Below are positions 16,677 through 33,988 of a DNA stretch of 64,000 nt, in pieces. Position 1 is the stretch's first letter. Each line of letters opens with the position of its first letter. Below the pieces are notes generated by a model. The model worked only from the letters and a program-made list of their open reading frames with translations, had not been told where the DNA came from and ran no database searches. The DNA is from Arenimonas composti TR7-09 = DSM 18010. GTDB taxonomy: Bacteria > Pseudomonadota > Gammaproteobacteria > Xanthomonadales > Xanthomonadaceae. The stretch spans positions 248,001 to 312,000 of the forward strand of contig NZ_AUFF01000003.1 in the NCBI RefSeq assembly GCF_000426365.1. The letters are read 5' to 3'. The position numbers and the translations under genes are program-made.

Positions 16677-16702
16677 ATCGGGAATCCTCGTTCCGATTAT
16701 GG
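16672..16702. promoter_or_regulatory. Nested palindrome upstream of the nucleotidyltransferase gene
   Basis: The outer arms are GTTCCCATA and TATGGGAAC, and the inner arms are TCGGGAA and TTCCGA. On the minus strand a CATAAT -10-like hexamer (16701-16696) falls in the outer arm, and the start codon falls in the other arm. This is a good candidate operator for the winged-helix domain of the encoded protein. Confidence 0.55.
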
Positions 16703-16810
16703 GAACGATCGTACCCGCCGAGGGAACGCGCTGCACCTGCGGCAGCTTCCCGCCTGAGCCGCCGGCCGGCGCGGGATACTGCGGCGAGTCATCGTCAGCG
16801 GAGACTTCCT

Positions 16811-17287
16811 ATGCCTTGCTTCAGCAGTGTGCCGGACGAGAACTGGATCGCGGCGCGGGTACGTGCGCTGTACGCCGAACCCTTTCGCACGATGCTCCTC
16901 GCGACGATCACCGCGTTGGAGAACCAAGGATTGGTGCCGGCCCCCGTCCTGATGCGGTGGCAATCCGATGCGTCAGCAGCGCAAGCATCGCCACTGCGCG
17001 AGCGCGAGGAAATCGACTGGCTCGTCTCGCAGCCCCGTTATCAACGCGGCTACAGCAACGGCAACCTCGCCGCGACGCTGCTTTGCGCATCGCTCTGGCG
17101 ATTGCTGGAGGCAGGCGGAGCGGTGCCTTCCGTCTGCAGTTCCTGGTGGGACGCGCACCTCGAGCGGGACCGCTTGCTCAATGACGACGAGGAGCCGAAA
17201 CCCGCCCGCCTGCCGGACGACATCGAAGTGATGTACAGCAGGGAGAAGCAGCTCTTCGAGGAAATCTGGCTGAAACCGAACGGATGA
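16811..17287 (+). CDS. Hypothetical protein of the defence-type region
   Basis: I do not recognise this 158-residue soluble protein. It is rich in tryptophan and acidic residues toward the end (WWDAHLERDRLLNDDEEP). It has a helical N-terminal part with ARVRALYAEPFRTMLLATI and a central QRGYSNGNLAATLLCASLW helix. It has no membrane segment or signal peptide. The ATG at 16811 follows a GGAGA site. It lies between the MNT-HEPN pair and the AAA ATPase gene, 81 bases upstream of the latter on the same strand, and might be functionally linked to it. Confidence 0.6.
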   Translation: MPCFSSVPDENWIAARVRALYAEPFRTMLLATITALENQGLVPAPVLMRWQSDASAAQASPLREREEIDWLVSQPRYQRGYSNGNLAATLLCASLWRLLEAGGAVPSVCSSWWDAHLERDRLLNDDEEPKPARLPDDIEVMYSREKQLFEEIWLKPNG

Positions 17288-17368
17288 CCCCGTTGGTGCC
17301 GGAGTCGCCATACGACACATGACGTCCTGACGGTCCGGACACTCGTCTCCACCCACCGGAGACGACCC

Positions 17369-19468
17369 ATGCGCCACCGCCACCGCAGCACCCTCACCAC
17401 CCGCCTCTCGCCGCTCGTGCGGCTGTGGATGCTGCGGATGCTGGTGCCGCTCGGCGCCCATCGCGCCTTTCTCCGCGACGGCATCGAGGACGAGGCCGTG
17501 GCCCTTTCGCTTGGCCTGCTCGAGGCGGGCGAGCGCGAGATCGCGGCCGGCTACGACGACGAGGACGCCGGCTCGCCGCCGAAGCACGTCCTGCTCGCCC
17601 GCCTGCGCCGCGCGCACGCCGCCGCCGAGGATGCGGCGGCGCGCGGCAAGGTGCAGCCGCCGGCGACCCTGGCGAAGAACCTGGCGCGGCTGGCGGGGCT
17701 GCTGGAACTGGACGACGACGACCGCGCGGTGCTCGGCTTCACCGTGATGCTGCACGAGGAGCCGCTGCTCGAAACGGTCTCGGAGTGGCTGGCGCTGCTG
17801 AACACCACGCAGCTGCTGCGGGTGCTGTCGGGGGTGCTGGACATTCCGCAGCGGCGGCTCGCGGCCACCCTCGGCCGCAAAGGCCTGCTCGCCCGTGCCG
17901 GGCTCGTGACCCTGGACCGCGGCGGCTACAGCACGCTGCGGCACAAGCTCGACCTGCTGTCGCCGGCCTTCGCCGACCACGTGCTCCGGACGCCGGCCGA
18001 ACCGCTGGACCTGTTGCGCGGCACCGTCGGCAGTGCGCCGGCGCCGGAACTGGGCTTCGCCGATTACGAACACCTGCAGGACGACCTCGCGGTGCTGCGC
18101 CCCTACCTGCGCCATGCGCTCGCCACCGGCCGCACCGGCGTCAACGTGTTCCTGCACGGGCCGCCGGGCACCGGCAAGACCCAGCTGGCGCGGCTGCTGG
18201 CGCATGACCTGGGCGCGCCACTGTTCGAGGTGAGCACCGAGGACGACGACGGCGATCCGATCGGCGGCGACAAGCGCCTGCGCGCGTTCAGCTGCGCCCA
18301 GACCCTGCTGTCGAAGCGACGCGCGCTGCTGCTGTTCGACGAGGTCGAGGACGTGTTCGCCGAAAGTGGCGAGCGGCGCAGCGCGGCGCAAGCGCGCAAG
18401 GGCTGGATGAACCGCACGCTCGAGGGCGGCACCGTGCCGACCCTGTGGCTGGCGAACACGCTGGCCGGTGTCGACCGCGCCTTCCTGCGCCGCTTCGACC
18501 TGGTCCTGGAACTGCCGATTCCGCCGCAGCGGCAGCGCCGACGCATCGCCGAACACGCCTGCGGCGACCTCGCGGGCGAAACGAGCCTGGCGCGCCTCGC
18601 CGCCGCAGAGGCCCTGTCGCCGGCGACTCTGGTGCGCGCGGCCTCGGTGGTACGCGCGGTGGCCGGCGAACTTCCGGATCCGGACGCCGCCCTGCAGCGG
18701 GTGGTCGGTCGCGCCCTCGAAGCGATCGACGCGCAGTTGCCGGACGCCGACCCGCTGCTGGCGCCGGGCGCCTACGACCTGGCCTTCCTCAACACGGAAG
18801 TCGACATGGCGGCGCTGGCGCAGGGCCTGGAACGCCGGCGTGCCGGCCGCCTCTGCCTGTACGGCCCGCCGGGCACCGGCAAGACCGCGTTCGCGCGCTG
18901 GCTGGCCGACCGCCTCGGCATGCCGCTGCACGTCAAGCGCGGCTCCGACCTGCTGGGATGTTTCGTAGGCGAAACCGAGAAGGCCATCGCCGCCGCCTTC
19001 CGCGAGGCGGAGGCCGAGGGCGCCCTGCTGCTGATCGACGAGGTCGACGGCTTCCTGCGCGACCGCCGCGGCGCGCACCGCTCCTGGGAGGTGACGCTGG
19101 TGAACGAGATGCTGACCCGGATGGAGCGCTTCCCCGGCCTGTTCATCGCCTCCACCAACCTGGTCGACGGGCTGGACCAGGCGGCGCTGCGCCGCTTCGA
19201 CGCCAAGCTGCACTTCGACTTCCTGCGCCCCGACCAGACCGTCGTCATGCTGCGCCGGCATTGTGCCGCGCTGGAACTGGCGCCGCCGCGGCCCGCCGAC
19301 GAGGCAGCGGCCGCGCGGATGGACGCGCTGACCCCGGGAGACTTCGCGGCGGTGCTGCGGCATCATCGGATCGCTCCGCTCGCGGACGCCGCCGACCTGG
19401 TCGCGCGGCTGCAGGCCGACTGCGGATTGAAGGAGCAGGGGAAACGGCGGATCGGCTTCGTGCACTGA
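17369..19468 (+). CDS. Tandem AAA+ ATPase
   Basis: The 699-residue protein has two AAA+ modules. The first has Walker A GPPGTGKTQLA near residue 264 and Walker B LLLFDEVEDVF. The second has Walker A GPPGTGKTAFA near residue 497, Walker B LLLIDEVDGFL, and an arginine finger/sensor region (ALRRFDAKLHF). The N-terminal 230 residues are helical and unlike known domains. The layout recalls a Cdc48/FtsH-type unfoldase without a protease. A GGAGA site precedes ATG 17369. A WYL-domain regulator follows after 27 bases, which suggests a stress- or defence-related operon. Confidence 0.8.
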   Translation: MRHRHRSTLTTRLSPLVRLWMLRMLVPLGAHRAFLRDGIEDEAVALSLGLLEAGEREIAAGYDDEDAGSPPKHVLLARLRRAHAAAEDAAARGKVQPPATLAKNLARLAGLLELDDDDRAVLGFTVMLHEEPLLETVSEWLALLNTTQLLRVLSGVLDIPQRRLAATLGRKGLLARAGLVTLDRGGYSTLRHKLDLLSPAFADHVLRTPAEPLDLLRGTVGSAPAPELGFADYEHLQDDLAVLRPYLRHALATGRTGVNVFLHGPPGTGKTQLARLLAHDLGAPLFEVSTEDDDGDPIGGDKRLRAFSCAQTLLSKRRALLLFDEVEDVFAESGERRSAAQARKGWMNRTLEGGTVPTLWLANTLAGVDRAFLRRFDLVLELPIPPQRQRRRIAEHACGDLAGETSLARLAAAEALSPATLVRAASVVRAVAGELPDPDAALQRVVGRALEAIDAQLPDADPLLAPGAYDLAFLNTEVDMAALAQGLERRRAGRLCLYGPPGTGKTAFARWLADRLGMPLHVKRGSDLLGCFVGETEKAIAAAFREAEAEGALLLIDEVDGFLRDRRGAHRSWEVTLVNEMLTRMERFPGLFIASTNLVDGLDQAALRRFDAKLHFDFLRPDQTVVMLRRHCAALELAPPRPADEAAAARMDALTPGDFAAVLRHHRIAPLADAADLVARLQADCGLKEQGKRRIGFVH

Positions 19469-19495: not shown

Positions 19496-20482
19496 ATGCG
19501 AGGCAAGCGGGAAGGAACGCAGGAAACGGCGCGGCTCGTGCTCGAGCTGCTCAAGCGCATCCCGCGGACGGGCTGGACGAGCGCGCCCGAGCTGCGGAAA
19601 CATCTCGAGGCCGCCGGCATGAAGCGCGACGTGCGCTCGATCCAGCGCACCCTCGACCAGCTGCAGGATCTGCTCCAGCTGGAGCGCGACACCCGCAGCC
19701 GGCCCCACGGCTACCGCTTCAAGCGCGATGCCGACTTCTTCGCCGCGCCCAAGCTAGGCGCGCAGGAATCCCTGCTGCTGCACCTGGCCTGGCGGCAGCT
19801 GCATCCGCTGCTGCCGCCGTCGCTGAAGGACTCGCTGTCCGCATTGTTCGAGCAGGCGCGCATCAACCTGGGCGCGAAGCCCGGTTCGCGCGAACGCGAG
19901 TGGCTCAGCAAGGTGCGCGTCGTAAGCCGCGCCCAGCACCTGCTGCCGCCGCCGGTCGACCCGGAGGTGTTCGAAGCGGTCTGCCATGCGCTCTACGACA
20001 ACAAACTGCTCGAGGTCGACTACCGCAACGCCGTCGGCGAGCAGTGGCAGGCGCAGGTGATGCCGCTCGGTCTGGTCCAGCTCGAGCCGGCGCTTTACCT
20101 GGTCTGCCGGTTCGACGGCCACGATGACGAACGCCTCCTCGCACTGCACCGGATGCGCGTGGCACGCCCTACCACGCTTGGCTTCCAGCGGCCGGCCGGA
20201 TTCGATCTCGATCGCTGCCACGACGAGGGCCTGTTCGCCTTCGGCCGCGGACGGATGGTTCGGCTTTCCTTCACCATCGACAAGGAGGCCGGGGCGCATC
20301 TGCTGGAGATGCGACTGTCGGACGATCAGACGGTCAAAGATCTTGGGGATTCGTACCGGATCGCGGCGACGGTGGTAGATACCTGGGTACTGCAGTGGTG
20401 GTTGCATGGGTTCGGCAAGCGAATAACGTCCGTCATTCGCCGGCCGATCAGCAAAGTCATCGACGAGTCCGATAGTCCATGA
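19496..20482 (+). CDS. WYL-domain transcriptional regulator
   Basis: The 328-residue protein has an N-terminal winged helix (about 1-75: SAPELRKHLEAAGMKRDVRS, then IQRTLDQLQ). The WYL fold follows (about 155-235: LLEVDYRNAVGE, LVCRFDGHDDERLLALHRM), then a WCX-type C-terminal dimer part. WYL proteins sense nucleic acids or other ligands and often control defence operons (for example BrxR, CapW). It sits in an operon with the AAA ATPase. Its 3' end overlaps the convergent DUF6642 gene by 26 bases. The DNA target is not known. Confidence 0.85.
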   Translation: MRGKREGTQETARLVLELLKRIPRTGWTSAPELRKHLEAAGMKRDVRSIQRTLDQLQDLLQLERDTRSRPHGYRFKRDADFFAAPKLGAQESLLLHLAWRQLHPLLPPSLKDSLSALFEQARINLGAKPGSREREWLSKVRVVSRAQHLLPPPVDPEVFEAVCHALYDNKLLEVDYRNAVGEQWQAQVMPLGLVQLEPALYLVCRFDGHDDERLLALHRMRVARPTTLGFQRPAGFDLDRCHDEGLFAFGRGRMVRLSFTIDKEAGAHLLEMRLSDDQTVKDLGDSYRIAATVVDTWVLQWWLHGFGKRITSVIRRPISKVIDESDSP

Positions 20483-21017
20483 CGAACCCGTAGTTCTGGA
20501 CGAGCCCTGCGCAATTTTTCTGCAGCCACTCTTCTGCGCGGGCCGGGCGGTCGTGGTAAAGCAGCCGAGTCAGAACCATTAGGTCGAAGGCGCTTCCCTC
20601 CACGAAATCAGGGCTTTTGGTGTAGCCACTCACCGATCGCGCCTTTGAGACTACTCGGAGTTCCGCCAACTCTTCTTTAGTCACCTTAAGAGTTTGACAG
20701 CACGAGAGCAGGATGTGGCGACCTTCGCATTTCCCGGAAAGCAGGTCGGCCAATTCATTCAGCGACACGACGTCCCTGCCTAGCTCAATTTTACCCTTGG
20801 TTCCGTGGAAGGTGAGAAAGCCGATGTCGTAGTGCGTCGTCTCCAACCACCTACCCAAGTACCATATAAATGCGTCGGCACTGGCCGCCCGACGGTATAT
20901 CGCAGGACGCAGATCGTCCCCAGCAGTTAGAAACTCCACGAGTGGGCGCACAGAATCTTGGTGACTGAAACTCTTGGACCACTCGCCCTCGATGCAAAAC
21001 ACGCCCTTCTTTGCCAT
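20457..21017 (-). CDS. DUF6642-like protein with caspase-like His/Cys pattern
   Basis: The 186-residue protein starts MAKKGVFCIEGEWSKSF and looks like DUF6642. A histidine after a hydrophobic strand (FLTFHG, His71) and a cysteine pair after another strand (ILLSCCQTL, Cys106/107) have the spacing of the caspase/CHAT catalytic dyad. A SGYT segment follows. If the fold holds, it is a small protease whose target is unknown. The gene is distinctly poorer in GC than its neighbours, so it was probably acquired separately. Its 3' end overlaps the WYL regulator gene on the other strand. The caspase reading is inference from the motif only. Confidence 0.6.
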   Translation of the reverse strand: MAKKGVFCIEGEWSKSFSHQDSVRPLVEFLTAGDDLRPAIYRRAASADAFIWYLGRWLETTHYDIGFLTFHGTKGKIELGRDVVSLNELADLLSGKCEGRHILLSCCQTLKVTKEELAELRVVSKARSVSGYTKSPDFVEGSAFDLMVLTRLLYHDRPARAEEWLQKNCAGLVQNYGFVMDYRTRR

Positions 21018-21418: not shown

Positions 21419-21519
21419 TGTTAGCGCCGATGGAAAACTGACCCACCCCGCCGATCGAAAACTGACCCACTCCGGGCGAGGATGGCGGCCTTCTGGAGGC
21501 CGCCTGGATGTTGACCTAG

Positions 21520-23292
<1,773 letters not shown>

Positions 23293-23425
23293 GCGCCGGG
23301 GTGGGTCAGATTTGAATCGGTGGCAGCGGGGCTAAGTGGGTCAGATTTGGATCGGCGTTGACACCGGTCGACGAACCCATTAGCAAAAGCGCGAAATCCA
23401 GGCAACTAACAAACCCGGAGCTCGA

Positions 23426-26400
23426 ATGGATCAGCCAGCCCAATCCAGGTTAAGCGGCTCGTACACGGCCAACCTCCTTGGCAACATCCGAAGCCACCTC
23501 GCCGGGCTGCAGGGCTACGACGTGATGGCGCTGGAGCTCATCCAGAATGCGGATGACGCGAAAGCCGAGGAAATCGTATTCGACATCACGGACAGTGGTT
23601 TGCTGGTGCGCAACAGCGGCCAGTTCACTTACTGCGGCGACTTGGACAAGCCGTGCGCATTTCTCTCCGAGGGCAACTACAAGTGCGACTACCACCGCAT
23701 CACGGATGTCGGCAGCGGCGGGAAGCTATCGCGCGGCGAGAATATCGGTCGCTTTGGTATCGGCTTCGTGTCCACCTATCAGGTGACGGACCATCCTGAG
23801 ATCCGCTCTTCCGGCATCAAGCTGGCGCTTTACCCCGAGCGGGGGCAATGGTTCATCGAGGCATTCGAAGAGCCAGATGGAACGTCTTTCTTTCTGCCCT
23901 GGGCGAGCGATCCCAACACTGAGGCGCGCCTCGCGCTTGGAATCTCCCACGTCAGCCCCACCCACATCGATCAGCTGGCCGAGGATTTCCAGACCGTTCT
24001 TCGCAAGAGCCTGCTGTTTCTTCGCCACGTTCGGAAGGCTGAGATACGCCGGAATGGCCAACTCCTGCTGGCCTGCGATCTGGACAGAAGCGAAGGCTCG
24101 GACCTCATAGTCAGTTTCAGGCCCAGTGGTGACATTGAGCAATGGCACATTCTTCGCGCCGACGCAGCGGAGGCTGCCCAGCGCCTCTATGCGACACACC
24201 CTCGGCTGGAGACGCTTCATCGAAGCACCAATATCAGCATTGGTCTGCGAATTGATCCCGAACCACTGACAGAGGGGCTGCTCTACGCGTTCTTACCCAC
24301 CGAACAGTCCACCGGGCTTCCTCTACACCTCAACGCGGACTTTTTCCCCGAGTCTGATCGCAAAGCGGTGATCTTTGCCGGGCATCAACACGAGCAGGCG
24401 TGGAATGAGATGCTCATCGACGCCGCCGCCACCGAGCTGGCCAGGGACCCCGAAGGCCTCCTGCAAATGCTCGGTCCCGTCCAGTTGTGGCAGATCCTCG
24501 GTCGAGCATACGACCTCTCCTCCAAGCCGGTGGGACACCCCGCTTGCTTCAAGCGGTTCTGGGAGCGCCTGAAGGTAACTGCGACACAAGCACAGATTGC
24601 GGAGGCACAGGACGGCAGCCTTCAGCAACCCAGCAGCGTATTTATTCCCCGCACTAACCTGAATGAACATCAGGCTAAGGCATTGCTCGAGGTGGGCGGC
24701 AGGCTCGTTGCTGAGGAGCTGCGCCCATTCCAAACGGCGATGAACCAGTTAGGCGCGCCGATTCTGACGCTTGAACGGCTCGTTGTGCTGATGGAATCAG
24801 CAATGGCAAAACAGGTGGCGGGAGCAACGGAAGTCGACCAGGAAAGACTGGAACATTTTCACCGCCCTCTCTGGAGCATCATCAACGACCTTCTTCCAGA
24901 TGCGGGAGCGAGCAACCCCAGCACGAATCCAGCGGTGCAACGACTGTTGGCATTGCCCTTTGTCGTCACCGAGGATCTTTTCGCGGTAACAATCAACCAG
25001 TCCTACACGGCGCCTGCCGGGCTGGACGCAGGTCGTATTGCGGCATTGCTGCCGAGACTCGCGATTGCCTCCAGCCTTCTCGAAGGATTTCCGAGAATCA
25101 CCCGACTGATAAAGCAGCTCCATCTCGGCGCAGTGGCTTCTCACATCAGCGAGATGTGCAAAACCGAACCAGTTGAAGATGTCATCGCCATTGCCCCGAA
25201 GGAGCTGCGCGAGCTCTACTCGTTGTTTGCTGCTTTGGACCACCAAAGCGCCGTCGAGAAGACAGTTTATGAGCAACTGCGCGACCTCCCCATATGGCAC
25301 TCAAGCCGCGGCCTCGTCAAAGCCACCCAAGCGCTTTTGCCGGGCAACTTCACAGATCCCACCGGTCAGGCCGACTTGCTCGACGACTCTGTCCTTACAG
25401 AATCAGCCAGAGTTCTCCTGACGAGCAAACTGGGCGTGCAGACACAAACGATCCAGGCGTTTGTACAGACCGTGTTGCCAACGTTTTTTGATAACGACGG
25501 CCCTCTGGATGCAAGCAAGTACAAACGGCTGATTAGCGAGCTCGCCAATCACCCGCATTTGGTGGACGAGGATGACATACGTCGGTTGCTGGGATCGCTT
25601 CCGATCGTGCCTACGCAGGATGGAGGCTGGTCGCGCCCAGTCAACACGTACCGCCGCACTGAAGAGCTCGTCAGGGTTCTCGGAGACGCGCCCCAGCACT
25701 GGCTGGATGCCGGCCGCATTCCGAATACGCGATCAGTGCATACATTCATCGACAGCCTTGGCATCCGACGATCACCGATTGCCAGACACCTGGTCGATCG
25801 GATGCTGTTCATCGCCGAGAAATACCTGCCAAGCGAAGATACGAAGCGTGCAAGCAGCGAGGCCTTTTACGTCCTCTGCGACAACTACGATGAGTGGAAA
25901 GAGAGAAGAGCCTTTCAGGATGCCCTGGATGACCTTCGAGAGGCGGCGTGTTTCCCTGCCGACGGGGACACGGAAGAGTGGCACTCAGCCGACTCCTTGT
26001 ACGCACCTTACCGTGCCGACGCATTCCGCTCACAGGCCAATATTCTGGACTTCAGGAACACGGTACGCCTGAAAACAGAGCTACTGGAAGAACTGGGTAT
26101 TTCCATCAACCCGGAAACTCGGCTGGTCATCGACCATTTGCAGCATTGCATCGCATCGGGCGTGCAGCCCCATGTCTCGACGTATCAGGTGTTGAACGAG
26201 CGCGCACAACGATCAGATCCGCTCATTGCGACTCTCGCTGGCTCGCGATGCATTTATGTCGAAAGCCAGAAGGCATTCGTCCGTCCCAACCAGCTGTACT
26301 GGGTGCCACAGCAACTTGGGCGCTACGCGTACACCATTCCGGGCAACTACGAGTCGTTTAGGCCGCTTTTTGATGCCATTGGAGTGAAGAATGCGCCGGA

Positions 26401-28216
26401 AGGTCGGGATTTCGTCGACATTCTGCTCGATATCGTTGGCGAATACTTCGAGCAGTCCAAGCCGCTGACAGGTCCAGACCGCGCGGTCTATGACGTCTGC
26501 CTGACCAGCGTTGCTACCGCCCATGAAAATGAGGAGCTGACACCATCGGACCTGCAGCGTCTGCAGCAGGCTCCAGCGATCTTGAACCTACGGGCCCAGC
26601 TCACTCATCCGGACGAAGTCCTGCTCCAGGATAGCGAGTGGCATGCCGGATTCTTTGGCGGGGAACTCGACCAAGCCTTGTGCAAGCCCGTTCCTGAACT
26701 TTGGCCATTCGTGGAAGAAGTCGGTGTCAGAAGGCTGAGTGAGAGTGCGCAGGTTGCACTTGAATTCGTCGATGGCCCGCAGGTCGACGAAACCCAGCTC
26801 GCCGAAAAGCTGATGGACAGGATGGACATCCTCGCCCGTTTGCTTCATGACAAACCGACAACTGTTAGAAAGAAGATTCGGAGCGCTCTTTCGACGTTGA
26901 CGGCCGTCAGCCACGACATTGTCCGTATCCATGCGTCTGTCCATGTTGGAGGGGATCAGGCATTCGCGCCTCCAACACCGGCGCAGGCGTTCTACGACAT
27001 CGAGAATGGGCGCTTGATTCTCGCCCGCCCAGTGGGCGATCGGAGTTGGGCACACGTCCTCAATGCGTTGTTCCACCAACTGATGCCAGAGGAATCAGGC
27101 AGCGAAATCTCAAAGCTGACGCTAAGCGTTCGTCCTCTCATGGGGATGGCGGTGGAATACGCTCATCGCGAATTGAGTGATGCTGGTATTCCCTATTTAG
27201 ATGTAGAGACTGGGAACGGGAACACGGAAGACCTGACGTCGCCGGACCTCGATGAGATGGGCGGCACAGCGGAGCCAGACGACCACGAGGAAACCGGGGC
27301 AGCATCTACCTCCGTCGACGATTCTGGCGAACAGACCGACGGCGCTCCTGGCACTCCCCATGGAAAGCTGCAACGCGATACGTCAGAGCCCTCAACGGGA
27401 GGAGAGGCAACAGAGCAACCTGGGCGTGAGGGGGAATCTGGCGGCCCACGCCGTGGTGTTACTGGACGCGATGGCTCGGAAACTGGCGGCGGCAGCAACA
27501 AGGGCTCCGGTGCAGGCGAGCGACGCGCGAAGAAACCCCGCCCCAAGCACAAGGAACAATGGGACCGACGCCTGCTTTCCTATGTTCGGCAAAGGCAAGA
27601 GGAGTCTTCGGACACTTGCGATCAGGACGACCCCTCCGCGCACAACTTGGCGGTCGAGGTTGTGGCTCGCGAGGCGGTATGTGCCTATGAAAAGGAGCGC
27701 GGTCGCGTGCCGGAACAGATGGCGCAAACCCACCCTGGATACGACATCATCAGCCGCAACCCCGTTACTGGCGAAGACCGGTTTATCGAAGTGAAGGGCG
27801 TCAATGGAGAGTGGAACCAAACCGGGGTCGGTCTATCACGGCTCCAGTTCAGCAATGCTCAAGACTACGGAGACCGCTACTGGTTGTATGTCGTCGAATT
27901 CGTTTCTGACCCAGAGCACATTCGCGTGCATCCCATTCGAAGCCCGGCAACCCAAGTTACTGCCTTCATGTTCGACGGCAACTGGCGGGACGCGGTAACA
28001 GAAGAGCGAGCAGACCCTTCTGCACTATTCATCCCCGGCGCACGGATACAGCATCAGGACATGGGATGTGGAGAAATTCGAGATGTGGTCACTCGTGGCA
28101 ATACCAAGTTGCTTACGATCCTGTTTGATGGTAAGTCGCAGGCGACCCCACATGTGACTTTGAACTTGCACCGCATGCGTATTCTGGAAGATCTCAATGT
28201 CGACAATGATTCCTGA
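23426..28216 (+). CDS. Giant sacsin-like ATPase with DUF3883 nuclease-like and Tudor-like C-terminus
   Basis: The protein has 1,596 residues. A GHKL (HSP90/sacsin-type) ATPase opens it: ELIQNADDA near 37-45 and the glycine box GRFGIGFVS near 108-116. A long helical/beta middle follows that I cannot assign. Next is a low-complexity, Gly/Glu/Thr-rich linker (about 1265-1375). A DUF3883 (NO VEIN C-terminal) domain follows, with the PD-(D/E)XK pattern GYDI (about 1437) then FIEVKG (about 1452). The last 55 residues (GARIQHQDMGCGEIRDV) resemble the Tudor-like end of PcrA/UvrD. The gene is GC-poor relative to the flanks and overlaps the next gene by 20 bases. A defence role is inferred from domains and context. 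Confidence 0.85.
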   Translation: MDQPAQSRLSGSYTANLLGNIRSHLAGLQGYDVMALELIQNADDAKAEEIVFDITDSGLLVRNSGQFTYCGDLDKPCAFLSEGNYKCDYHRITDVGSGGKLSRGENIGRFGIGFVSTYQVTDHPEIRSSGIKLALYPERGQWFIEAFEEPDGTSFFLPWASDPNTEARLALGISHVSPTHIDQLAEDFQTVLRKSLLFLRHVRKAEIRRNGQLLLACDLDRSEGSDLIVSFRPSGDIEQWHILRADAAEAAQRLYATHPRLETLHRSTNISIGLRIDPEPLTEGLLYAFLPTEQSTGLPLHLNADFFPESDRKAVIFAGHQHEQAWNEMLIDAAATELARDPEGLLQMLGPVQLWQILGRAYDLSSKPVGHPACFKRFWERLKVTATQAQIAEAQDGSLQQPSSVFIPRTNLNEHQAKALLEVGGRLVAEELRPFQTAMNQLGAPILTLERLVVLMESAMAKQVAGATEVDQERLEHFHRPLWSIINDLLPDAGASNPSTNPAVQRLLALPFVVTEDLFAVTINQSYTAPAGLDAGRIAALLPRLAIASSLLEGFPRITRLIKQLHLGAVASHISEMCKTEPVEDVIAIAPKELRELYSLFAALDHQSAVEKTVYEQLRDLPIWHSSRGLVKATQALLPGNFTDPTGQADLLDDSVLTESARVLLTSKLGVQTQTIQAFVQTVLPTFFDNDGPLDASKYKRLISELANHPHLVDEDDIRRLLGSLPIVPTQDGGWSRPVNTYRRTEELVRVLGDAPQHWLDAGRIPNTRSVHTFIDSLGIRRSPIARHLVDRMLFIAEKYLPSEDTKRASSEAFYVLCDNYDEWKERRAFQDALDDLREAACFPADGDTEEWHSADSLYAPYRADAFRSQANILDFRNTVRLKTELLEELGISINPETRLVIDHLQHCIASGVQPHVSTYQVLNERAQRSDPLIATLAGSRCIYVESQKAFVRPNQLYWVPQQLGRYAYTIPGNYESFRPLFDAIGVKNAPEGRDFVDILLDIVGEYFEQSKPLTGPDRAVYDVCLTSVATAHENEELTPSDLQRLQQAPAILNLRAQLTHPDEVLLQDSEWHAGFFGGELDQALCKPVPELWPFVEEVGVRRLSESAQVALEFVDGPQVDETQLAEKLMDRMDILARLLHDKPTTVRKKIRSALSTLTAVSHDIVRIHASVHVGGDQAFAPPTPAQAFYDIENGRLILARPVGDRSWAHVLNALFHQLMPEESGSEISKLTLSVRPLMGMAVEYAHRELSDAGIPYLDVETGNGNTEDLTSPDLDEMGGTAEPDDHEETGAASTSVDDSGEQTDGAPGTPHGKLQRDTSEPSTGGEATEQPGREGESGGPRRGVTGRDGSETGGGSNKGSGAGERRAKKPRPKHKEQWDRRLLSYVRQRQEESSDTCDQDDPSAHNLAVEVVAREAVCAYEKERGRVPEQMAQTHPGYDIISRNPVTGEDRFIEVKGVNGEWNQTGVGLSRLQFSNAQDYGDRYWLYVVEFVSDPEHIRVHPIRSPATQVTAFMFDGNWRDAVTEERADPSALFIPGARIQHQDMGCGEIRDVVTRGNTKLLTILFDGKSQATPHVTLNLHRMRILEDLNVDNDS

Positions 28217-29918
28217 GCTTTCTGAAGCGCAGCTCAATGAGCTGCCATCACAGGCCGAGGCGAAGGTATATCGGGCTCTGAGGAACAAGCTTCCACAGGA
28301 TTACGTCGTCTTTTTTCAGGTCGGGTGGATACTGCGACGAGAGGAAGAGCAAGCGAAGGATGGGGAAACGGACTTCTTGGTTTGCCATCCCGACCACGGC
28401 TATCTCTGCATTGAAGTAAAAGGCGGCGGCGTCGGATTTGATGCGAGCACCGGTGATTGGTTTTCTGTAGACCGCCATCAGCAGAAGCACCCCATTAACA
28501 ACCCGATTAGCCAGGCGCTAAAGGCCAAGTACTCGATTCGCTCAAAGCTGAACGAGCACCCACGGTGGCGGGACCTTGGTCTCGGGAATGTGCTTCGAGG
28601 CCACACAGTCTTCTTCCCCGACGTGGGCGACACCAATGCACTGAGTCGACCGGACATGCCCGGAGCCTTGATTGGCTCTGCCAGGTCTCTTCAAGACCCG
28701 AAGTCGTGGATCGATCGAGTCTTTGACTACTGGGGTAGCGACGCCGGAAGCTTTACACCGATAGGACGCCGTGGAATCGACGTAGTCCGCGAAGTGTTTG
28801 CGAGATCCTTTGTCGTCGCTCCGCTGGTCGCGTCGCGGCTTGCCGATCAGGAGGCGCGCAGACTGGTGCTCACGAAAGACCAGATGCGAGTTCTTGACTT
28901 CTTGCGCTCACATCGAAGAGCCGCAGTCAGCGGTGGTGCGGGTACAGGCAAGACCGTCTTGGCGCTTGAGAAGGCCCGCCGCCTCGCCTCAGAGGGTTTC
29001 AAGACATTGCTCACTTGCTACAACAGGCAGTTGGCCGATCACTTGTCGAGCACGTGCGCTGGTACGAGCAACCTGGACGTAATGAGCTTCCATCAGCTTT
29101 GCTATGGACAGGTCGAAAAGGCCAATCACGTCTCGGGCCGAGATCTTGTTGCAGAGGCGAAGGTGACGTACCCCGGCAAGGGTCTCTACGACGTACAGCT
29201 TCCCAACGCATTTGCGTATTCTCTGGAGGTCCTTCCCGATCGTTATGACGCAATCGTTTGTGACGAGGGCCAGGATTTCCGTGAAGAGTTCTGGGTCCCG
29301 CTTGAACTCATGCTGTCGGACTACGAAAGCGCGCCGCTATACGTCTTCTACGATGACAACCAGAATGTTTACGCGCGCGCTGGCACCTTCCCGATACGCG
29401 AAGAGCCGTTCACGCTGACAAACAACTGCAGGAATACCGCGCCGATTCATGTGGCTGCGTACAAGCACTACAAGGGGTTACCAGTCAGCCCTCCTGATAT
29501 CGAAGGGGACGAATTGCAGTTCGACGCGTCGCCCGGGCGTGATGCCCAGGCCGCTAAGATCAATGCACGGATCATTGACCTCGTCGCTCGCCAAGGAGTT
29601 TCTGCAGGAGATATCACTGTATTGATTGCCGATGCGCTGCGCAAAGCCGATTACTACGCAGCCTTGAGGCGGCTACCCCTACCGAAGCCCGCGACTTGGC
29701 TGGAGGAAGGCATTCGCACCAACAACACCGTCCTGATCGACACGATTCAGCGCTTCAAAGGACTCGAGTCTCCGATTGTGATTCTTTGGGGTCTGGACAC
29801 CATCGATTTGACGCATAGCGAGGAGCTGCTCTATGTCGGCATGAGCAGGGCGAAATCACTCTTGATCGTTGTCGGGACAGCCGTAACCTGCGCGGGCTTT
29901 GAGGTTTCGGAGCACTGA
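28197..29918 (+). CDS. NERD nuclease-domain and UvrD-like SF1 helicase
   Basis: The 573-residue protein joins a nuclease-related NERD domain to a superfamily 1 helicase. The NERD core reads GETDFLVCHPDHGYLCIEVK near 57-76 and contains the D-ExK residues. The helicase has Walker A GGAGTGKT (about 245), Walker B VCDEGQD (about 355), the FKGLESPIVIL motif and LYVGMSRAK near the end. It may cut or unwind DNA or RNA together with the product of the overlapping upstream gene. The start is ATG 28197, or ATG 28206 three codons later. Same low GC as the upstream gene, so the two moved together. Confidence 0.88.
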   Translation: MSTMIPELSEAQLNELPSQAEAKVYRALRNKLPQDYVVFFQVGWILRREEEQAKDGETDFLVCHPDHGYLCIEVKGGGVGFDASTGDWFSVDRHQQKHPINNPISQALKAKYSIRSKLNEHPRWRDLGLGNVLRGHTVFFPDVGDTNALSRPDMPGALIGSARSLQDPKSWIDRVFDYWGSDAGSFTPIGRRGIDVVREVFARSFVVAPLVASRLADQEARRLVLTKDQMRVLDFLRSHRRAAVSGGAGTGKTVLALEKARRLASEGFKTLLTCYNRQLADHLSSTCAGTSNLDVMSFHQLCYGQVEKANHVSGRDLVAEAKVTYPGKGLYDVQLPNAFAYSLEVLPDRYDAIVCDEGQDFREEFWVPLELMLSDYESAPLYVFYDDNQNVYARAGTFPIREEPFTLTNNCRNTAPIHVAAYKHYKGLPVSPPDIEGDELQFDASPGRDAQAAKINARIIDLVARQGVSAGDITVLIADALRKADYYAALRRLPLPKPATWLEEGIRTNNTVLIDTIQRFKGLESPIVILWGLDTIDLTHSEELLYVGMSRAKSLLIVVGTAVTCAGFEVSEH

Positions 29919-30161
29919 GCACTTTGATGTCGCCGGCCTGACAGGGGCGCGCAGAGCACGCTTCACCTGGTGTGGACCGCAATGCTTGCAACTCGTCCAA
30001 GCAGCGTGCCTGCGGGTTCCGCAGCCGGGAGCGCTTCCGCAACGCGATTCTTTTCCACCCCGGCGGGCTGGACTTATATCCGCGACCGGCTCAAGTTCCG
30101 GTCCGGTGACCCACCAGATCCGGTGAAGCCCCGTAAATTAACCGGCAACCCCAGACGAATT
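29919..30161. other. Non-coding gap between convergent modules
   Basis: The gap lies between the stops of the helicase gene and the Res-like gene. I see no gene and no clear terminator hairpin. It marks the join between two modules of different base composition. Confidence 0.4.
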
Positions 30162-33100
30162 TCAAGAGAGCCGCAAGTGTGGTTCCGTGACCGTCGGCGA
30201 GAGGTCTTCCAGTAGCTTACCGATCGCGGTGCGATGCAGGCAAAGGTGGTACGACCACGTACCAAATCGCCCGTCGTTATTTACGCCCCGGCACCAGCGC
30301 TCAGCCGCAGCTTTCTTTAGATGCGCCTCGCCAAGCTGGCCCTTGATTTCGATGATCAACAGTCTGCCGTCGACCAATCGGACGATGAAATCCGGAATGT
30401 ACCTCCGGGCGCCACCTTGGTTATCCCGGTAGGGAATCGAAAGTCCTAGCCTGACGTTTTTCACCCAAGCCTCGACTCCCTCGTGCGCGTCGAGAAGCAA
30501 CGCGGCCTCTCTCTCCCACTCGGAGTCGAAAACTGAAGCGTTCGTGTGCGACTTGGTGGCTTCGTGAAGCTCTTTGCCGGTGTAGAAGTTGATATGCGCA
30601 GTGCTTCGGATGCCCGCAGCCCCACTTGGAATGATCGCGCGCTCCTTGCTCTGCCCGGACTCATCAACGATATCCATGGCGTGCGTCAGCATGGTGAGCG
30701 CTTTGCCGAAATAGGGGTTAATTGCGAGATCCTGTAGTTTGCGACTACCTACCGGCGTGACGTGCTCCTCCATGAAGCGTTGCGACACAGCCAGCATCTG
30801 CGGGAAGAGTCGATGAGCTGGAATTGCGGGACCTCTGTCTTCCATCCACCGATGGACAAGTGCGCTGGCCAGCTCGAACGCGACCTGCTGCGGCCTGACG
30901 TTGGCTCGCCAAGCTTCGAGACTGACCAGCACCGGGCTTCCTGGGCCAAAGGCCAACAAGCGGCCGTCAGCCGTCGTCAGCCCCATGAGGAGCGTCGCAT
31001 CCGGAACCTGTTCCGGATCCATGACGAGTTCTCCCACGTGGTTCCAGTCGACGCCGACCTTGAAGATTCCCGGGTCCTGATAGCCATCGACGACCGGAAA
31101 TTCGATCTCGTACTCGGACTTGGCCGAGTCCGCGTACACGTGATTGGCAGGCGGCGTGGGCGGCGCGGGCTTACCACCTTCGACCTTGAACGGAATCAGC
31201 TCGAAGGGAACGCCGAAGATCTGCGCCGTCTCCTCGGTAAACAGTTTCGTTTCCTGATCCACAGTGTATGACGTTCGCCGCAATGCACGGCCAACGACCT
31301 GCTCGCAAAGCAGCTGCGATCCGAAGGGGCGCAATCCGACAACGTGCGTAACCGTCGTGGCATCCCAACCTTCGGAAAGCATTGACACGGAAATGATGCA
31401 CCGGATCCTGCGTCCCGGCGGAACCATCGGATCGATGCGCTCGGCTGACCGATCTTCCTCTTCGAGCTTCCGATTGACCTTCTCGATCAGCGCTGCGTAT
31501 TCGTCCGGCACGTGGCCACCCGGCCATTCAACGCGCCCCACGGTTTCCAACACGAAGCGCAGTCGGCGCGTCTCGTCTTCGCTCCCGCCAGCTGCGATGT
31601 CTTCTCCGACCTTGCTGTCGATGCGGACCGTGTACTCGCGGCCCGGCCGGTTGCGGAACTCCGGTACGCCCGCGCCGTACTGCGGGTCACCGTCGGCCAG
31701 CCAGGCATGCATGGCTTTGGCGATCGTCGTGTCCTTGCAGACGATGATGAAAACCGGCGGCACGTCATGGCGGCGGTTGCCGTCTTTGAACCGCTGATTC
31801 CAGATCGCCTCGGTCTCGCGCCAGTTCTGCGCCAAGGTCATGATCGGCTGTGCGGCCCAACGCATCACCTCGGTGACGGTCACGGGCCCGATCAGGCCTT
31901 CCCCGCGCGCCTTCTGCTCCACCCAGCGCCAGATGTTGAAGTAGGGCGGCACCTCGGTTCCGCCAGACTCGTCGGTCGGCAGTTGCGGCACCTTGACCAG
32001 CCCGGCCTCGATGGCTTCCAGCAAGCTGAAGTCGGACACGATCCAGGGGAAGGGCTTGCCGACCTCGTTGCCGCTACCCTGGATGTAGAACGGTGTGGCG
32101 GACAGGTCTACGCAGAGGCGGATGCCGTTGCTTCGGCCGCCGAGCGCCTTGTTGATTCGGTCAAGGCCCTCGATCCAGACCGTCGCCTCGCGTGCATTGG
32201 CCTTGGACTCCTCATCGTCGTCCCCAGTCGCAGGGGCCGCGCCGCGCCGGTAGGCGTGGTGCGCTTCGTCGTTCATTACCAAGACGGCGGAGCTCCGCCC
32301 CTTACGGCCGCCGAGGATGCGCCGAAGGAAAGCAGCATCGCTCTCGAAGTATCGTGTCTCGCGGACGGTGTAAGCCCTGGGCCTTTCTTGGCGGTCACGG
32401 TCGATGCGCAGGATCGTGAACTTCCCCACCGTCGCCTGTTGCTCGATGTCCGCCACGGACAGCTTGGGGCCTGGCTTGATGACCCGATCTGATTCGACCG
32501 GGACACCGCGCTTCACCACCTTGGCCGACTGCCCGTTCACGTCGGTCAGTTCGCGCCGCTCGAGGTTGTGCCAGTTGGTGATGAAGACCTCGCCGCGCCG
32601 CAGGTCCGGCATCAGGTGCACGGGCACCAGTTCCCGGGTGCGGTAGAGCGACAGGTCGTCGCGTTCGGGCTTGAGTTCCTGCAGACGGTCCCGGATGGTG
32701 ATGTTGGGACAGATGATCAGGACCGTGTCCGAGTACGCCGCCGCCTGTGGGTCGGCGACCTTGTTCAGGATCGACCACGCGGCGAGCATCCCCATCACCG
32801 TGGTCTTGCCGCTGCCCGTGGCCATCTTCAGCGCGTAACGCTGGAAGGCGCGATAGCCTTGGCTGCGTGAATCCTCGCCGGGCTCGTCCATCGGGACATG
32901 GACGCCCTGCCGCAGATCCGCCGGTCCCTCGACGAGGAAAATCGCGGTTTCCACCGCCTCTAGCTGGGCGAAGAACAGCGGGTGCACGCGGTCGGGGTGA
33001 CGCCAGGTGTCGATCAGCTCGCGGGTCACGCGGGTGGCGCCGGCGTAACCGCGGTCCCTCCATTCCTGCACGCGCTGCCGCAGCAGATTGGCGAGGTCGA

Positions 33101-33320
33101 GCAGGTACTCCTGGCCCTTGAGGTCCTCCTCGAAGAAGTCCCGCACACCCTCGGCCCGTCGCCCACGCGCTGCGGACTCGGGAACGCGCAGGAAGTAACT
33201 GGCAAGGCGCCGTCCAGAACGCTTCTCCGGCGGCTTACCCTCGGCGATGTGCCAGTGATGAGCTGGCGCCGCGTAGGGCGAGTTGATGATCGGGTTGGCA
33301 ACTGTGTTGATCCGGCTCAT
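30162..33320 (-). CDS. Res-type DEAD/DEAH helicase with C-terminal endonuclease
   Basis: The 1,052-residue protein resembles the restriction subunit of type III systems. Helicase motif I is KMATGSGKTT (about 170), motif II is NDEAHHAY (about 350), and motif VI is CEQVVGRALRR after SMLSEGWDA. The C-terminus has a PD-(D/E)XK nuclease: IPDFIVRL (about 975) followed by IIEIKGQ (about 992). It would translocate on DNA and cut when its Mod partner signals an unmodified site. The ATG at 33320 overlaps the upstream stop as ATGA. It is the last gene of a four-gene operon. Alternative: a helicase-nuclease of a non-type III defence system. Confidence 0.85.
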   Translation of the reverse strand: MSRINTVANPIINSPYAAPAHHWHIAEGKPPEKRSGRRLASYFLRVPESAARGRRAEGVRDFFEEDLKGQEYLLDLANLLRQRVQEWRDRGYAGATRVTRELIDTWRHPDRVHPLFFAQLEAVETAIFLVEGPADLRQGVHVPMDEPGEDSRSQGYRAFQRYALKMATGSGKTTVMGMLAAWSILNKVADPQAAAYSDTVLIICPNITIRDRLQELKPERDDLSLYRTRELVPVHLMPDLRRGEVFITNWHNLERRELTDVNGQSAKVVKRGVPVESDRVIKPGPKLSVADIEQQATVGKFTILRIDRDRQERPRAYTVRETRYFESDAAFLRRILGGRKGRSSAVLVMNDEAHHAYRRGAAPATGDDDEESKANAREATVWIEGLDRINKALGGRSNGIRLCVDLSATPFYIQGSGNEVGKPFPWIVSDFSLLEAIEAGLVKVPQLPTDESGGTEVPPYFNIWRWVEQKARGEGLIGPVTVTEVMRWAAQPIMTLAQNWRETEAIWNQRFKDGNRRHDVPPVFIIVCKDTTIAKAMHAWLADGDPQYGAGVPEFRNRPGREYTVRIDSKVGEDIAAGGSEDETRRLRFVLETVGRVEWPGGHVPDEYAALIEKVNRKLEEEDRSAERIDPMVPPGRRIRCIISVSMLSEGWDATTVTHVVGLRPFGSQLLCEQVVGRALRRTSYTVDQETKLFTEETAQIFGVPFELIPFKVEGGKPAPPTPPANHVYADSAKSEYEIEFPVVDGYQDPGIFKVGVDWNHVGELVMDPEQVPDATLLMGLTTADGRLLAFGPGSPVLVSLEAWRANVRPQQVAFELASALVHRWMEDRGPAIPAHRLFPQMLAVSQRFMEEHVTPVGSRKLQDLAINPYFGKALTMLTHAMDIVDESGQSKERAIIPSGAAGIRSTAHINFYTGKELHEATKSHTNASVFDSEWEREAALLLDAHEGVEAWVKNVRLGLSIPYRDNQGGARRYIPDFIVRLVDGRLLIIEIKGQLGEAHLKKAAAERWCRGVNNDGRFGTWSYHLCLHRTAIGKLLEDLSPTVTEPHLRLS

Positions 33321-33988
33321 GTCGGCTTTCTCACCTTCAGAACCAAACAGGGTTCCGACAGCAGGGTTATGTCGTCAGACAGCCCGGTTTCCAGCAGGTG
33401 GAGCCCGGCGAGGGAAAAGGCGTCTTCGCGCGCGAAGTCCCCCATCGGCACTGATCCGTCGGCGATGGCGGCCGCAAACGCCATCGCCCCGCACAGCGCG
33501 TCGCGTTCGTGGGGCGACAGGCCATCCGCATCGCCTAGTTGCACGCAGATGCCGGCCCGCCGGGTGATGAACGCCTCCCAGCAGAAGAGGTTTGCGCTTC
33601 CTTGGACCAGCTCGGCCCATCGGGTCGTGCCGCGGACAGTTGGCACGCGCTCCGCGATACGCGCGAGGCACCAGTTCACTTGGGCCAATCCTATGGCCAG
33701 CACCGAGGCGCCGGGTCCGCCACACCAGTTCACACGCTCCTCCCCGGCACGCCGGCGGGACATGGCGAACATGTCCGCTCGTTTCGGCACGTAGAGTGGG
33801 CATTCGAATCCGACGGCTACGCGTTGGCCGGCGGCCAGCAGGTCCACGACGTGCCCGACGAAGACGCTCAGATCACCGCCAGCCCGCCGCCGATCGTCGC
33901 TGAGAACCGCCCAGCCGACATTGCCCTTGGCGGGTGATCCGACATCGAGACAGGCCACAGCGTCGACTGCGAGCACACGCACCATCAC
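33317..33988 (-). CDS. Uncharacterised RNase H-like (DUF429-like) protein
   Basis: The 223-residue protein is encoded between the methyltransferase and Res genes, with overlapping start and stop codons on both sides. Its motifs recall the RNase H-like fold of DUF429: an early strand with an aspartate (VLAVDAVA), a second acidic strand (VGFECPLYVP), FCWEAFITR and a late HERDALCGAMAFAAA helix. The start is GTG 33988 or ATG 33985. I do not know a function. Its coupling to both neighbours suggests a part of the same machine, for example a nuclease or a regulatory subunit. Classification is tentative. Confidence 0.6.
   Translation of the reverse strand: MMVRVLAVDAVACLDVGSPAKGNVGWAVLSDDRRRAGGDLSVFVGHVVDLLAAGQRVAVGFECPLYVPKRADMFAMSRRRAGEERVNWCGGPGASVLAIGLAQVNWCLARIAERVPTVRGTTRWAELVQGSANLFCWEAFITRRAGICVQLGDADGLSPHERDALCGAMAFAAAIADGSVPMGDFAREDAFSLAGLHLLETGLSDDITLLSEPCLVLKVRKPT

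What the first reader, a model, noticed from the sequence alone, without database searches (positions are those of the whole stretch)
23426..29918. Two-gene module: giant sacsin-type ATPase-nuclease and NERD-helicase
The first protein joins a GHKL ATPase (QNADDA, GRFGIGF), a long middle, a DUF3883 PD-(D/E)XK-like nuclease and a Tudor-like end resembling PcrA/UvrD. The second joins a NERD nuclease domain to an SF1 helicase. The genes overlap by 20 bases, share a lower GC than the flanks and sit in a defence-type island. I know of no characterised defence system with exactly this pair, so it is the best candidate for an undescribed system.
Basis: partly seen in the sequence, partly recalled or inferred. 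Interest (0 to 1): 0.8.

Follow-up and report, generated by a model that had tools for sequence, protein, structure and literature searches.

The report
Two-gene Tiamat variant with NERD-helicase
Two overlapping bacterial genes, a giant sacsin-like ATPase-nuclease already catalogued as the single-gene phage-defence protein TmtA (Tiamat) and a nuclease-helicase, are kept together as one unit across very different bacteria, which suggests that this branch of Tiamat is really a two-part system.

Summary
In detail: two full-length genes (23426-28216 and 28197-29918, + strand) overlap by 20 bases in a low-GC island. Gene 1 is not undescribed: end to end it matches PADLOC's TmtA, the protein of the Tiamat system (link recalled). 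What is new is the pairing. In 27 of 27 TmtA relatives (49-92% identity) NERD-helicase sequence begins at the TmtA stop, with exactly 20 bases of overlap in 25 of 27. The two proteins diverge in step, and DNA shared with eight relatives does not reach beyond the pair. These helicases form one fully supported clade, sister to helicases of helicase-DUF1998 (DISARM-like) operons. Active sites are intact. TmtA ends in a PcrA/UvrD-like Tudor barrel. Against an obligate pair: 7 of 27 helicase genes are clearly broken, 5 of them beside an intact TmtA. Best reading: a two-gene Tiamat variant in which an ATP-gated GHKL-nuclease works with an SF1 nuclease-helicase, by analogy with MutL-UvrD or Gabija. 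No activity could be tested here. Novelty: new variant of a known kind.

The parts
23426..28216 (+). Gene 1, TmtA-type protein, 1596 aa: sacsin-type GHKL ATPase, long mostly helical middle, disordered linker, DUF3883 nuclease, Tudor-like barrel
   Evidence: ORF; PADLOC TmtA PDLC03969, residues 1-1586 against 1-1563 of 1563, 2297 bits
23465..24085 (+). Sacsin-type GHKL ATPase domain (residues 14-220); E37, N41, D44, G108, G111, G113 invariant
   Evidence: Pfam SACS; sacsin SR1 fold Z 17.0; invariant in 23 of 23 rows
27206..27535 (+). Low-confidence, probably disordered linker (residues 1261-1370)
   Evidence: pLDDT under 50 for model residues 112-221
27656..27916 (+). DUF3883/NOV_C PD-(D/E)XK-type nuclease (residues 1411-1497); D1440, E1455, K1457, Q1474 invariant
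   Evidence: Pfam NOV_C; fold matches to SPARDA nuclease and Hjc; 23 of 23 rows
28022..28189 (+). PcrA/UvrD-like Tudor barrel (residues 1533-1588)
   Evidence: profile match to 7egs, 6yi2, 9dqs; five-strand barrel; Z 6.5-7.2
28186..28191 (+). GGAAGA, ribosome-binding-like, inside the end of gene 1 and 5 bases before the ATG of gene 2 (read by eye)
   Evidence: sequence context printed
28197..28216 (+). 20-base overlap of the two genes
   Evidence: same length in 25 of 27 relatives (24, L018); 17 bases in L015, 8 in L013
28197..29918 (+). Gene 2, NERD-SF1 helicase, 573 aa
   Evidence: ORF; Pfam NERD and UvrD_C_2
28251..28553 (+). NERD nuclease domain (residues 19-119); D55, E57, D59, E73, K75 invariant
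   Evidence: Pfam; 20 of 20 rows
28908..29873 (+). SF1 helicase core (residues 238-559): Walker A K252, DEGQD 356-360, R412, R519, R551
   Evidence: Pfam; K252, D356, E357, Q359, R412, R519, R551 invariant in 20 of 20 rows; nearest solved relatives Schlafen 11 and 5, then PcrA
23407..29904 (+). Outer limits of DNA similarity to eight relatives: the two genes and up to 19 bases before them
   Evidence: blastn against 8 chosen loci, every match inside this range; L017 starts inside the gene and L029 has lost most of gene 2

Best explanation
It is a two-gene variant of the Tiamat anti-phage system. Gene 1 (TmtA) is an ATP-gated machine: a sacsin/Hsp90-type GHKL domain binds ATP, a long helical body probably recognises the trigger, and a DUF3883 nuclease on a flexible linker cuts DNA. 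Gene 2, co-translated from the overlapping start, is a NERD-nuclease/SF1-helicase that opens and degrades DNA from that cut. The PcrA/UvrD-like Tudor barrel at the end of TmtA most likely tethers the helicase or a shared partner. The logic would be that of MutL with UvrD, or of Gabija's GajA with GajB. Shown: domains, conserved active sites, conserved adjacency and overlap, matched divergence, shared DNA limited to the pair. Inferred: co-translation, ATP gating, DNA as substrate, physical complex, phage as target. Unknown: trigger and self/non-self discrimination.
For: TmtA match over the full length. NERD-helicase sequence starts at the TmtA stop in 27 of 27 relatives, 20-base overlap in 25 of 27. 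The pair recurs in the viral-database contigs L093 (TmtA 73%) and L094 (88%, TmtA split in two frames), on a Sphingomonas plasmid (L031: TmtA 30%, helicase 48%) and in L096 (helicase 43%). Divergence of the two proteins correlates, r = 0.976 over 15 loci, best of 9,999 permutations 0.858. No DNA match to 8 chosen loci reaches beyond the pair; the window's flanks (8 kb up, 6 kb down) match none of the other 29 on either side. Helicases next to TmtA form one clade, support 1.0. Checked catalytic residues invariant. Some other TmtA lineages also lie by SF1 helicases: UvrD in L063; UvrD-PDDEXK in L095, L097, L098. In print: a GHKL-plus-nuclease Shedu protein needs both sites for defence (PMC12137116, passages); GajA binds GajB (PMC10681800, passages).
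Against: 7 of 27 helicase genes are clearly broken (L005, L006, L010, L018, L021, L025, L029), and TmtA is one full-length frame beside 5 of them (L005, L006, L021, L025, L029), so TmtA may work alone. L008 keeps an intact helicase with a TmtA that lacks residues 1-214, the whole ATPase domain. The 31%-identical TmtA of L030 has no NERD-helicase beside it. Tiamat is catalogued as one gene (recalled). Whether sacsin-type GHKL domains hydrolyse ATP is debated (PMC9880540, passages). The TmtA of L096 has lost the nuclease aspartate. In published assays GajB showed no helicase activity, so the analogy does not prove unwinding here. Genome samples gave few independent examples.
Confidence: 0.6

Rival explanations
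1. Ordinary single-gene Tiamat; the NERD-helicase is a dispensable passenger or accessory that rides along because the genes overlap and move together.
For: Tiamat is defined by TmtA alone (recalled). TmtA is intact beside a clearly broken helicase in 5 of 27 loci, while the reverse is seen in 2 of 27 (L008, L009), plus L094 and the TmtA remnant of G242/L068 outside that set. Of the distant TmtA lineages examined, most lack the helicase.
Against: A passenger would not be expected in 27 of 27 relatives with a nearly fixed overlap, nor to be better conserved than its partner (mean pairwise identity 0.712 against 0.593), nor to keep every checked catalytic residue. Some breaks sit in metagenome assemblies and may be errors or recent decay.
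Confidence: 0.28
2. The pair is an auxiliary part of a restriction-modification system, here the convergent BPTD_3080-type operon at 30162-39812, as MORC/paraMORC GHKL proteins are with R-M genes.
For: An R-M-like operon starts 244 bases away. Tudor-less TmtA relatives sit inside or beside operons with a UvrD-nuclease and a methylase in L095, L097 and L098, with a Res protein in the first two. MORC-R-M links are in print (PMC2292703, passages).
Against: In none of the 27 relatives was the window's Res or methylase found in the DNA held (tblastn over 60 bits). The operon is on the opposite strand. In the 8 other class genomes with both a BPTD_3080 and a (mostly weak) TmtA hit, the two lie on different contigs or, in G247, about 390 kb apart.
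Confidence: 0.07
3. A transcription-linked DNA maintenance or repair module, docked on RNA polymerase by the UvrD-like Tudor domain, not a defence system.
For: PcrA and UvrD use this domain to bind RNA polymerase (PMC8318588 and PMC7585439, passages). The host RpoB carries the published docking motif, VDTKTGELL.
Against: The lysine that PcrA needs (K727) is not a lysine in TmtA under the alignment made with the host's UvrD. Patchy spread and exchange as a unit fit defence better; some of the 119 flanking ORFs scanned match R-M, BrxL, DpdF or MADS models, though without a background control.
Confidence: 0.05

Closest known systems
Tiamat (TmtA)
   Same: Gene 1 matches TmtA model PDLC03969 end to end; sacsin-type GHKL plus DUF3883.
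   Different: Tiamat is listed as one gene (recalled); here NERD-helicase sequence overlaps it in 27 of 27 close relatives.
NERD-helicases of DISARM-like loci (DrmA/DrmB or helicase-DUF1998 operons)
   Same: Nearest relatives of gene 2 outside the TmtA clade, about 32-35% identical in the plasmid hits opened.
   Different: There the helicase lies with helicase and DUF1998 genes; no Drm protein was matched in the rows shown for the eight window proteins scanned.
PADLOC RTasNERD-Hel and C3a187 (NERD+UvrD)
   Same: Best PADLOC matches of gene 2 (218.7 and 96.1 bits).
   Different: Partial matches (best stretches 1-298 and 237-565), and no reverse transcriptase among the eight proteins scanned.
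Gabija (GajA-GajB)
   Same: Nuclease plus UvrD-like SF1 protein in two genes; complex formation published.
   Different: No GajA match for gene 1; gene 2 only 23.5 bits to GajB.
GHKL-type Shedu (VcSduA) and paraMORC
   Same: GHKL ATPase fused to a PD-(D/E)xK nuclease; both sites needed for defence in VcSduA.
   Different: Shedu domain DUF4263 not matched; the GHKL part here is sacsin-type.
MutL with UvrD
   Same: GHKL protein partnered with an SF1 helicase; used as a model for MORC/R-M systems (PMC2292703, passages).
   Different: An analogy only, no sequence membership; gene 2 carries its own NERD domain, and no Tudor was found in it or in 61 related helicase ORFs, duplicates included.

Membership tests
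Tiamat | TmtA protein over its full length | tested here: met
   PDLC03969, 2297.1 bits, 1-1586 against 1-1563/1563; that TmtA is the Tiamat protein is recalled
Tiamat | System consists of TmtA alone (catalogue definition, recalled) | tested here: not met
   second overlapping gene at the TmtA stop in 27 of 27 relatives, clearly broken in 7; hence 'two-gene variant of', not plain Tiamat
Tiamat | Protects against phage | not testable with these tools
   needs an experiment
Gabija | GajA (OLD-type ATPase with TOPRIM) | tested here: not met
   no GajA model among the 13 matches of gene 1 at E 0.01
Gabija | GajB helicase | tested here: not met
   23.5 bits, 56 residues matched
Shedu | DUF4263 nuclease domain | tested here: not met
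   Pfam lists only SACS and NOV_C at E 0.01
DISARM | DrmA and DrmB beside the helicase | tested here: not met
   no Drm match in P0001-P0008 at E 0.01 among the rows shown (the lists of P0005 and P0006 were cut at 25 rows)
DRT with RTasNERD-Hel | Reverse transcriptase with a full-length NERD-Hel match | tested here: not met
   218.7 bits, best stretch 1-298; no RT in the rows shown for the eight proteins scanned
PcrA/UvrD Tudor domains | Sequence and fold of the Tudor domain | tested here: inconclusive
   profile E 0.003-0.015 and Z 6.5-7.2, but Pfam PF21196 not reached and other SH3-like barrels tie in Z
PcrA/UvrD Tudor domains | RNA-polymerase-binding lysine (PcrA K727) | tested here: not met
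   not a lysine in TmtA when aligned with the host's own UvrD, whose lysine I take as the K727 equivalent by reading; gap placement there is uncertain
MORC/paraMORC | GHKL followed by S5 domain with R-M partners | tested here: inconclusive
   no S5 model tested; the part after the ATPase domain matches TRAP1 only loosely

The most novel reading that the evidence does not exclude
TmtA has taken over the Tudor arm that PcrA/UvrD helicases normally carry on their own C-terminus and uses it to load a Tudor-less NERD-helicase onto a shared docking hairpin, possibly on RNA polymerase, so that the pair searches transcribed DNA and destroys phage genomes where they are being read. Support: Tudor-like C-termini and NERD-helicases go together in a post-hoc count of 10 TmtA contexts (3 of 4 with Tudor have the helicase, 0 of 6 without; one-sided p 0.033); none of 62 NERD-helicase ORFs (duplicates included) has a Tudor match; and in G242 the only part of TmtA left beside an intact helicase is the piece that contains the Tudor barrel. 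Against: the critical lysine is missing, and that remnant looks like an insertion-sequence truncation.
Probability: 0.1. Interest if true: 0.8.

Novelty: new variant of a known kind. Interest (0 to 1): 0.5.

Why it matters
A 2026 review puts Tiamat in its group of systems with unknown mechanism (PMC12926258, one passage). A fixed second gene with a helicase and a nuclease gives a direct, testable handle: which gene cuts, which unwinds, and whether detection tools that call Tiamat from one gene miss half of the system in this lineage. It also joins three threads now treated apart: sacsin-type GHKL proteins, the NERD-helicases of DISARM-like loci, and UvrD-like Tudor domains.

Tried and rejected
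Plain chance adjacency: rejected by 27 of 27 relatives. A wholly undescribed system: rejected for gene 1 by PADLOC. Pairing as a property of all Tiamat: rejected; of the distant TmtA-like genes opened, L030, L032, L062, L063, L073-L075, L095, L097 and L098 have no NERD-helicase ORF next to them. RNA polymerase docking as the leading idea: demoted after the lysine check. A partnership with the convergent R-M operon: demoted.

Led nowhere or little: no match of the first 4000 bases of gene 1 or of gene 2 in E. coli genomes; TmtA not in the phage collection, gene 2 only once, at 30%, in an unannotated faecal phage record not opened further; the phylum sample of 398 genomes held no second copy of either gene at this level (next best TmtA 103 bits, next best helicase 334 bits); viral scans with L030 and L031 proteins found nothing and with L096 only itself; no promoter-like site in 23300-30200. 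In the class sample G200 is a 10711-base contig with the same TmtA frame break as L009, so I take it as the same record and not as independent support. Internal repeats in the TmtA middle are suggestive only (block 761-860 against 974-1048, E 1e-4; 10 hits at E 0.01 or better in shuffles; the script's line says 20 blocks x 200, but only 19 blocks were run). No statement is made on known folds for the TmtA middle; it was barely tested.

Rows dropped: the 10-context count left out TmtA-like loci that were truncated, at contig ends or too distant to place the C-terminus (L064, L065, L070, L072-L085, L099-L101), and the barrel of L096 was seen by pairwise alignment only, not by the Tudor profile. 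The divergence test used the 15 loci present in both alignments. The residue counts used 23 TmtA and 20 helicase rows that I chose as open frames. The tree left out broken and most duplicate helicases; 3 of its 27 clade tips are still duplicates of the own, L009 and L068 copies. The boundary comparison used 8 chosen loci. The 27 relatives come from a scan for exact short peptides of protein 1, so close relatives only. The defence-neighbour scan covered the 119 flanking ORFs of 300 aa or more that were not TmtA or helicase, not shorter ones, with no background control, and shows only the 25 commonest families of each half.
Full report
What is there. The window carries two + strand genes, 23426-28216 (1596 aa) and 28197-29918 (573 aa), which overlap by 20 bases. 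They lie in a stretch of lower GC (pair 0.576; 0.718 for 1-18000 and 0.702 for 41001-64000). The genome has one match to each.

Protein 1. PADLOC identifies it end to end as TmtA, model PDLC03969 (2297.1 bits, residues 1-1586 on positions 1-1563 of 1563). That TmtA is the protein of the Tiamat system is recalled, not taken from a call. Pfam gives the sacsin domain at 33-129 and NOV_C (DUF3883) at 1411-1497. Predicted in two parts (mean pLDDT 68.5 and 65.7), the N-terminus matches sacsin SR1 (Z 17.0, 175 aligned, 2.3 A, 27% identity) and the DUF3883 part matches PD-(D/E)XK nucleases, best the SPARDA nuclease (Z 12.0, 118 aligned, 2.8 A) and Hjc resolvases (best Z 10.9, 112 aligned, 3.0 A). Residues 1261-1370 are probably disordered. 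The last 60 residues form a five-stranded barrel whose profile finds only UvrD/PcrA C-terminal domains among solved structures at E up to 1 (7egs 0.003, 6yi2 0.0039, 9dqs 0.015, 5dma 0.59). By fold these stand at Z 6.5-7.2, tied with other SH3-like barrels, and the Pfam Tudor model was not reached, so I call it Tudor-like. E37, N41, D44, the glycines at 108, 111 and 113, R312, D1440, E1455, K1457 and Q1474 are invariant in 23 of 23 aligned proteins down to 30% identity. That R312 corresponds to the proposed catalytic arginine of sacsin (PMC9880540, passages) is my inference, not an alignment result.

Protein 2. NERD at 19-119 and an SF1 core ending in UvrD_C_2 at 512-559, which leaves 14 residues and no room for a Tudor domain; a Tudor profile finds none in it or in 61 related helicase ORFs, duplicates included. 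The nearest solved relatives are Schlafen 11 and 5, then PcrA. The NERD residues D55, E57, D59, E73, K75 and the helicase residues K252, D356, E357, Q359, R412, R519, R551 are invariant in 20 of 20 proteins.

The pair as a unit. A scan of one genome per species (84,980 species) with protein 1, by exact short peptides and so for close relatives, gave 27 loci; by record titles they come from proteobacteria of several classes, Geobacter relatives, and metagenome bins labelled Rhodothermales, Phycisphaerae and Roizmanbacteria (bin labels may be wrong). In 27 of 27 NERD-helicase sequence begins at the end of TmtA. The overlap is exactly 20 bases in 25 of 27, 17 in L015 and 8 in L013; in L010 the start codon reads ATT (L018). 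A GGAAGA stands 5 bases before the ATG in the window (by eye). Two viral-database contigs add close copies (L093, L094). Farther out, a Sphingomonas plasmid has TmtA at 30% with the helicase at 48% two bases downstream, and a viral-database contig has a 1907-aa TmtA (best PADLOC model PDLC03965, 502.6 bits) followed after 6 bases by a helicase at 43%. The 31% TmtA of a Microvirga plasmid has no NERD-helicase beside it.

Co-inheritance. Pairwise divergences of the two proteins correlate with r = 0.976 over 15 loci (largest of 9,999 permutations 0.858), and 0.916 over 13 without the two most distant. DNA similarity to eight chosen relatives lies wholly inside window 23407-29904. Of 30 upstream and 30 downstream flanks compared, the window's match none of the others; 23 and 25 pairs of other flanks share pieces. 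So the two genes seem to move as a cassette. In a tree of 45 NERD-helicases all TmtA-linked ones fall in one clade of 27 tips (24 distinct), support 1.0, with no member from another context. Its sister group (L034-L037, L086) includes annotated UvrD/helicase/DUF1998/NERD operons (L034-L036) and a gene next to an MZB (DUF1998-like) protein (L086); farther branches include DrmA/DrmB loci such as L071. The simplest history is one recruitment of a NERD-helicase into the TmtA context.

Against an obligate pair. Of the 27 helicase genes 18 are complete; L014 is cut by the contig end; L015 loses similarity at residue 479, about 130 bases before its contig end, and is left undecided. Seven are clearly broken: four keep only about the first 60-90 codons (L005, L010, L025, L029; L025 also keeps the end), L021 runs into a transposase-like frame (read by eye), and L006 and L018 have frame breaks. 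TmtA is a single frame of 1594 aa or more in five of these seven (L005, L006, L021, L025, L029). Conversely, beside an intact helicase TmtA lacks residues 1-214, the ATPase domain, in L008 and is split in L009 and L094, and in G242 only its last 109 codons remain next to what reads by eye as an IS3-type transposase. Some breaks may be assembly errors.

Independent sampling. In 369 genomes of the class, helicase matches over 800 bits were three: the own copy, G200 (the L009 record, so not new) and G242, whose TmtA is the remnant above; the next best, 280 bits and less, include G125 and G172 next to DrmA-like genes (DrmA tested for G125 only). In 398 genomes of the phylum there was no second copy of either gene at this level. 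The pair is therefore rare, and the case for it rests on the 27 relatives.

Reach within Tiamat. Most other TmtA lineages opened lack the NERD-helicase, yet SF1 helicases recur: a UvrD-type helicase 57 bases downstream in L063, and UvrD-PDDEXK proteins in L095, L097 and L098 with a methylase and, in L095 and L097, a Res protein. That makes 6 of 9 contexts outside the main clade with an SF1 helicase linked (L031, L096, L063, L095, L097, L098; not L030, L032, L062). A Tudor-like C-terminus goes with the NERD-helicase in 3 of 4 contexts, and 6 of 6 contexts without the Tudor lack the helicase; the count is small and post hoc (p 0.033 one-sided).

Mechanism. The family logic is GHKL-nuclease plus SF1 helicase. 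In print, MORC/paraMORC proteins were proposed to act in R-M systems much as MutL acts with UvrD (PMC2292703, passages); a GHKL-nuclease Shedu protein needs both active sites for defence (PMC12137116, passages); GajA and GajB form a complex though GajB showed no helicase activity (PMC10681800, passages). I therefore favour ATP-gated cutting by TmtA followed by NERD-helicase processing. The trigger is unknown. Docking on RNA polymerase through the Tudor domain is attractive because PcrA does so (PMC8318588, passages) and the host RpoB has the docking motif, but the lysine that PcrA needs is not there.

Known or new. Gene 1 is known (Tiamat, validated by Millman et al. 2022, recalled; that paper is not held). 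In the passages I saw, three papers name Tiamat as one entry among other systems and do not mention this helicase (PMC12629846, PMC12409356, PMC12926258), and no held paper from 2022 on combines Tiamat, NERD and helicase. The finding is best filed as a new two-gene variant of a known kind.

Noticed in passing
21449-23357: IS21-like element (terminal inverted repeats matched at 20 of 22 bases; IstA/IstB-like frames, IstB split between frames, recognised by eye) ends about 69 bases before the TmtA start and may have replaced its promoter.
   Followed up: partly
30162-39812: Convergent operon: BPTD_3080-family Res (1078 bits), a 223-aa protein without a PADLOC, Pfam or NCBIfam match at E 0.01, a type III-like N6/N4 methylase, and a UvrD-PDDEXK protein. 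The Res family is common: 20 of 339 class genomes over cut-off, the own one included.
   Followed up: partly
19496-20482 and 20457-21017: WYL-domain regulator and a DUF6642 protein (caspase-like look, by eye) at the island edge. Another shared gene, about 300 aa and regulator-like by eye, lies upstream of TmtA in L007, L009, L021, L025 and L093.
   Followed up: no
L095 5125-17095; L097 5014-17442; L098 2850-11225: Tudor-less TmtA-like genes inside (L095, L097) or beside (L098) operons with a UvrD-PDDEXK protein and an N6/N4 methylase, plus Res in L095 and L097: a possible four-gene system.
   Followed up: partly
L106 213-2810: SF1 helicase with three PcrA/UvrD-type Tudor repeats at its N-terminus, followed by 1112-aa and 610-aa genes (not scanned) and a NERD-helicase gene.
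   Followed up: partly
L011 11559-11749 and downstream of the pair in L008, L017, L021, L028, L093, L094: Conserved block of up to about 190 bases at varying distances after the pair; six copies aligned begin with a T-arm-like GGTTCAATTCC or variant (by eye); no Rfam match in L011. Possibly an attachment site.
   Followed up: partly
L096 2805-8528: TmtA of this viral-database contig has GCSL in place of the nuclease motif GYDI, so its DUF3883 may be inactive while its NERD-helicase is a full open frame.
   Followed up: no
L008 7455-13848: TmtA-like frame without the first 214 residues (no GHKL domain found upstream) but with nuclease, Tudor and an intact NERD-helicase: a natural truncation or a reduced version.
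   Followed up: partly
39976-40069: SAH riboswitch on the + strand (Rfam RF01057, 42.5 bits).
   Followed up: no
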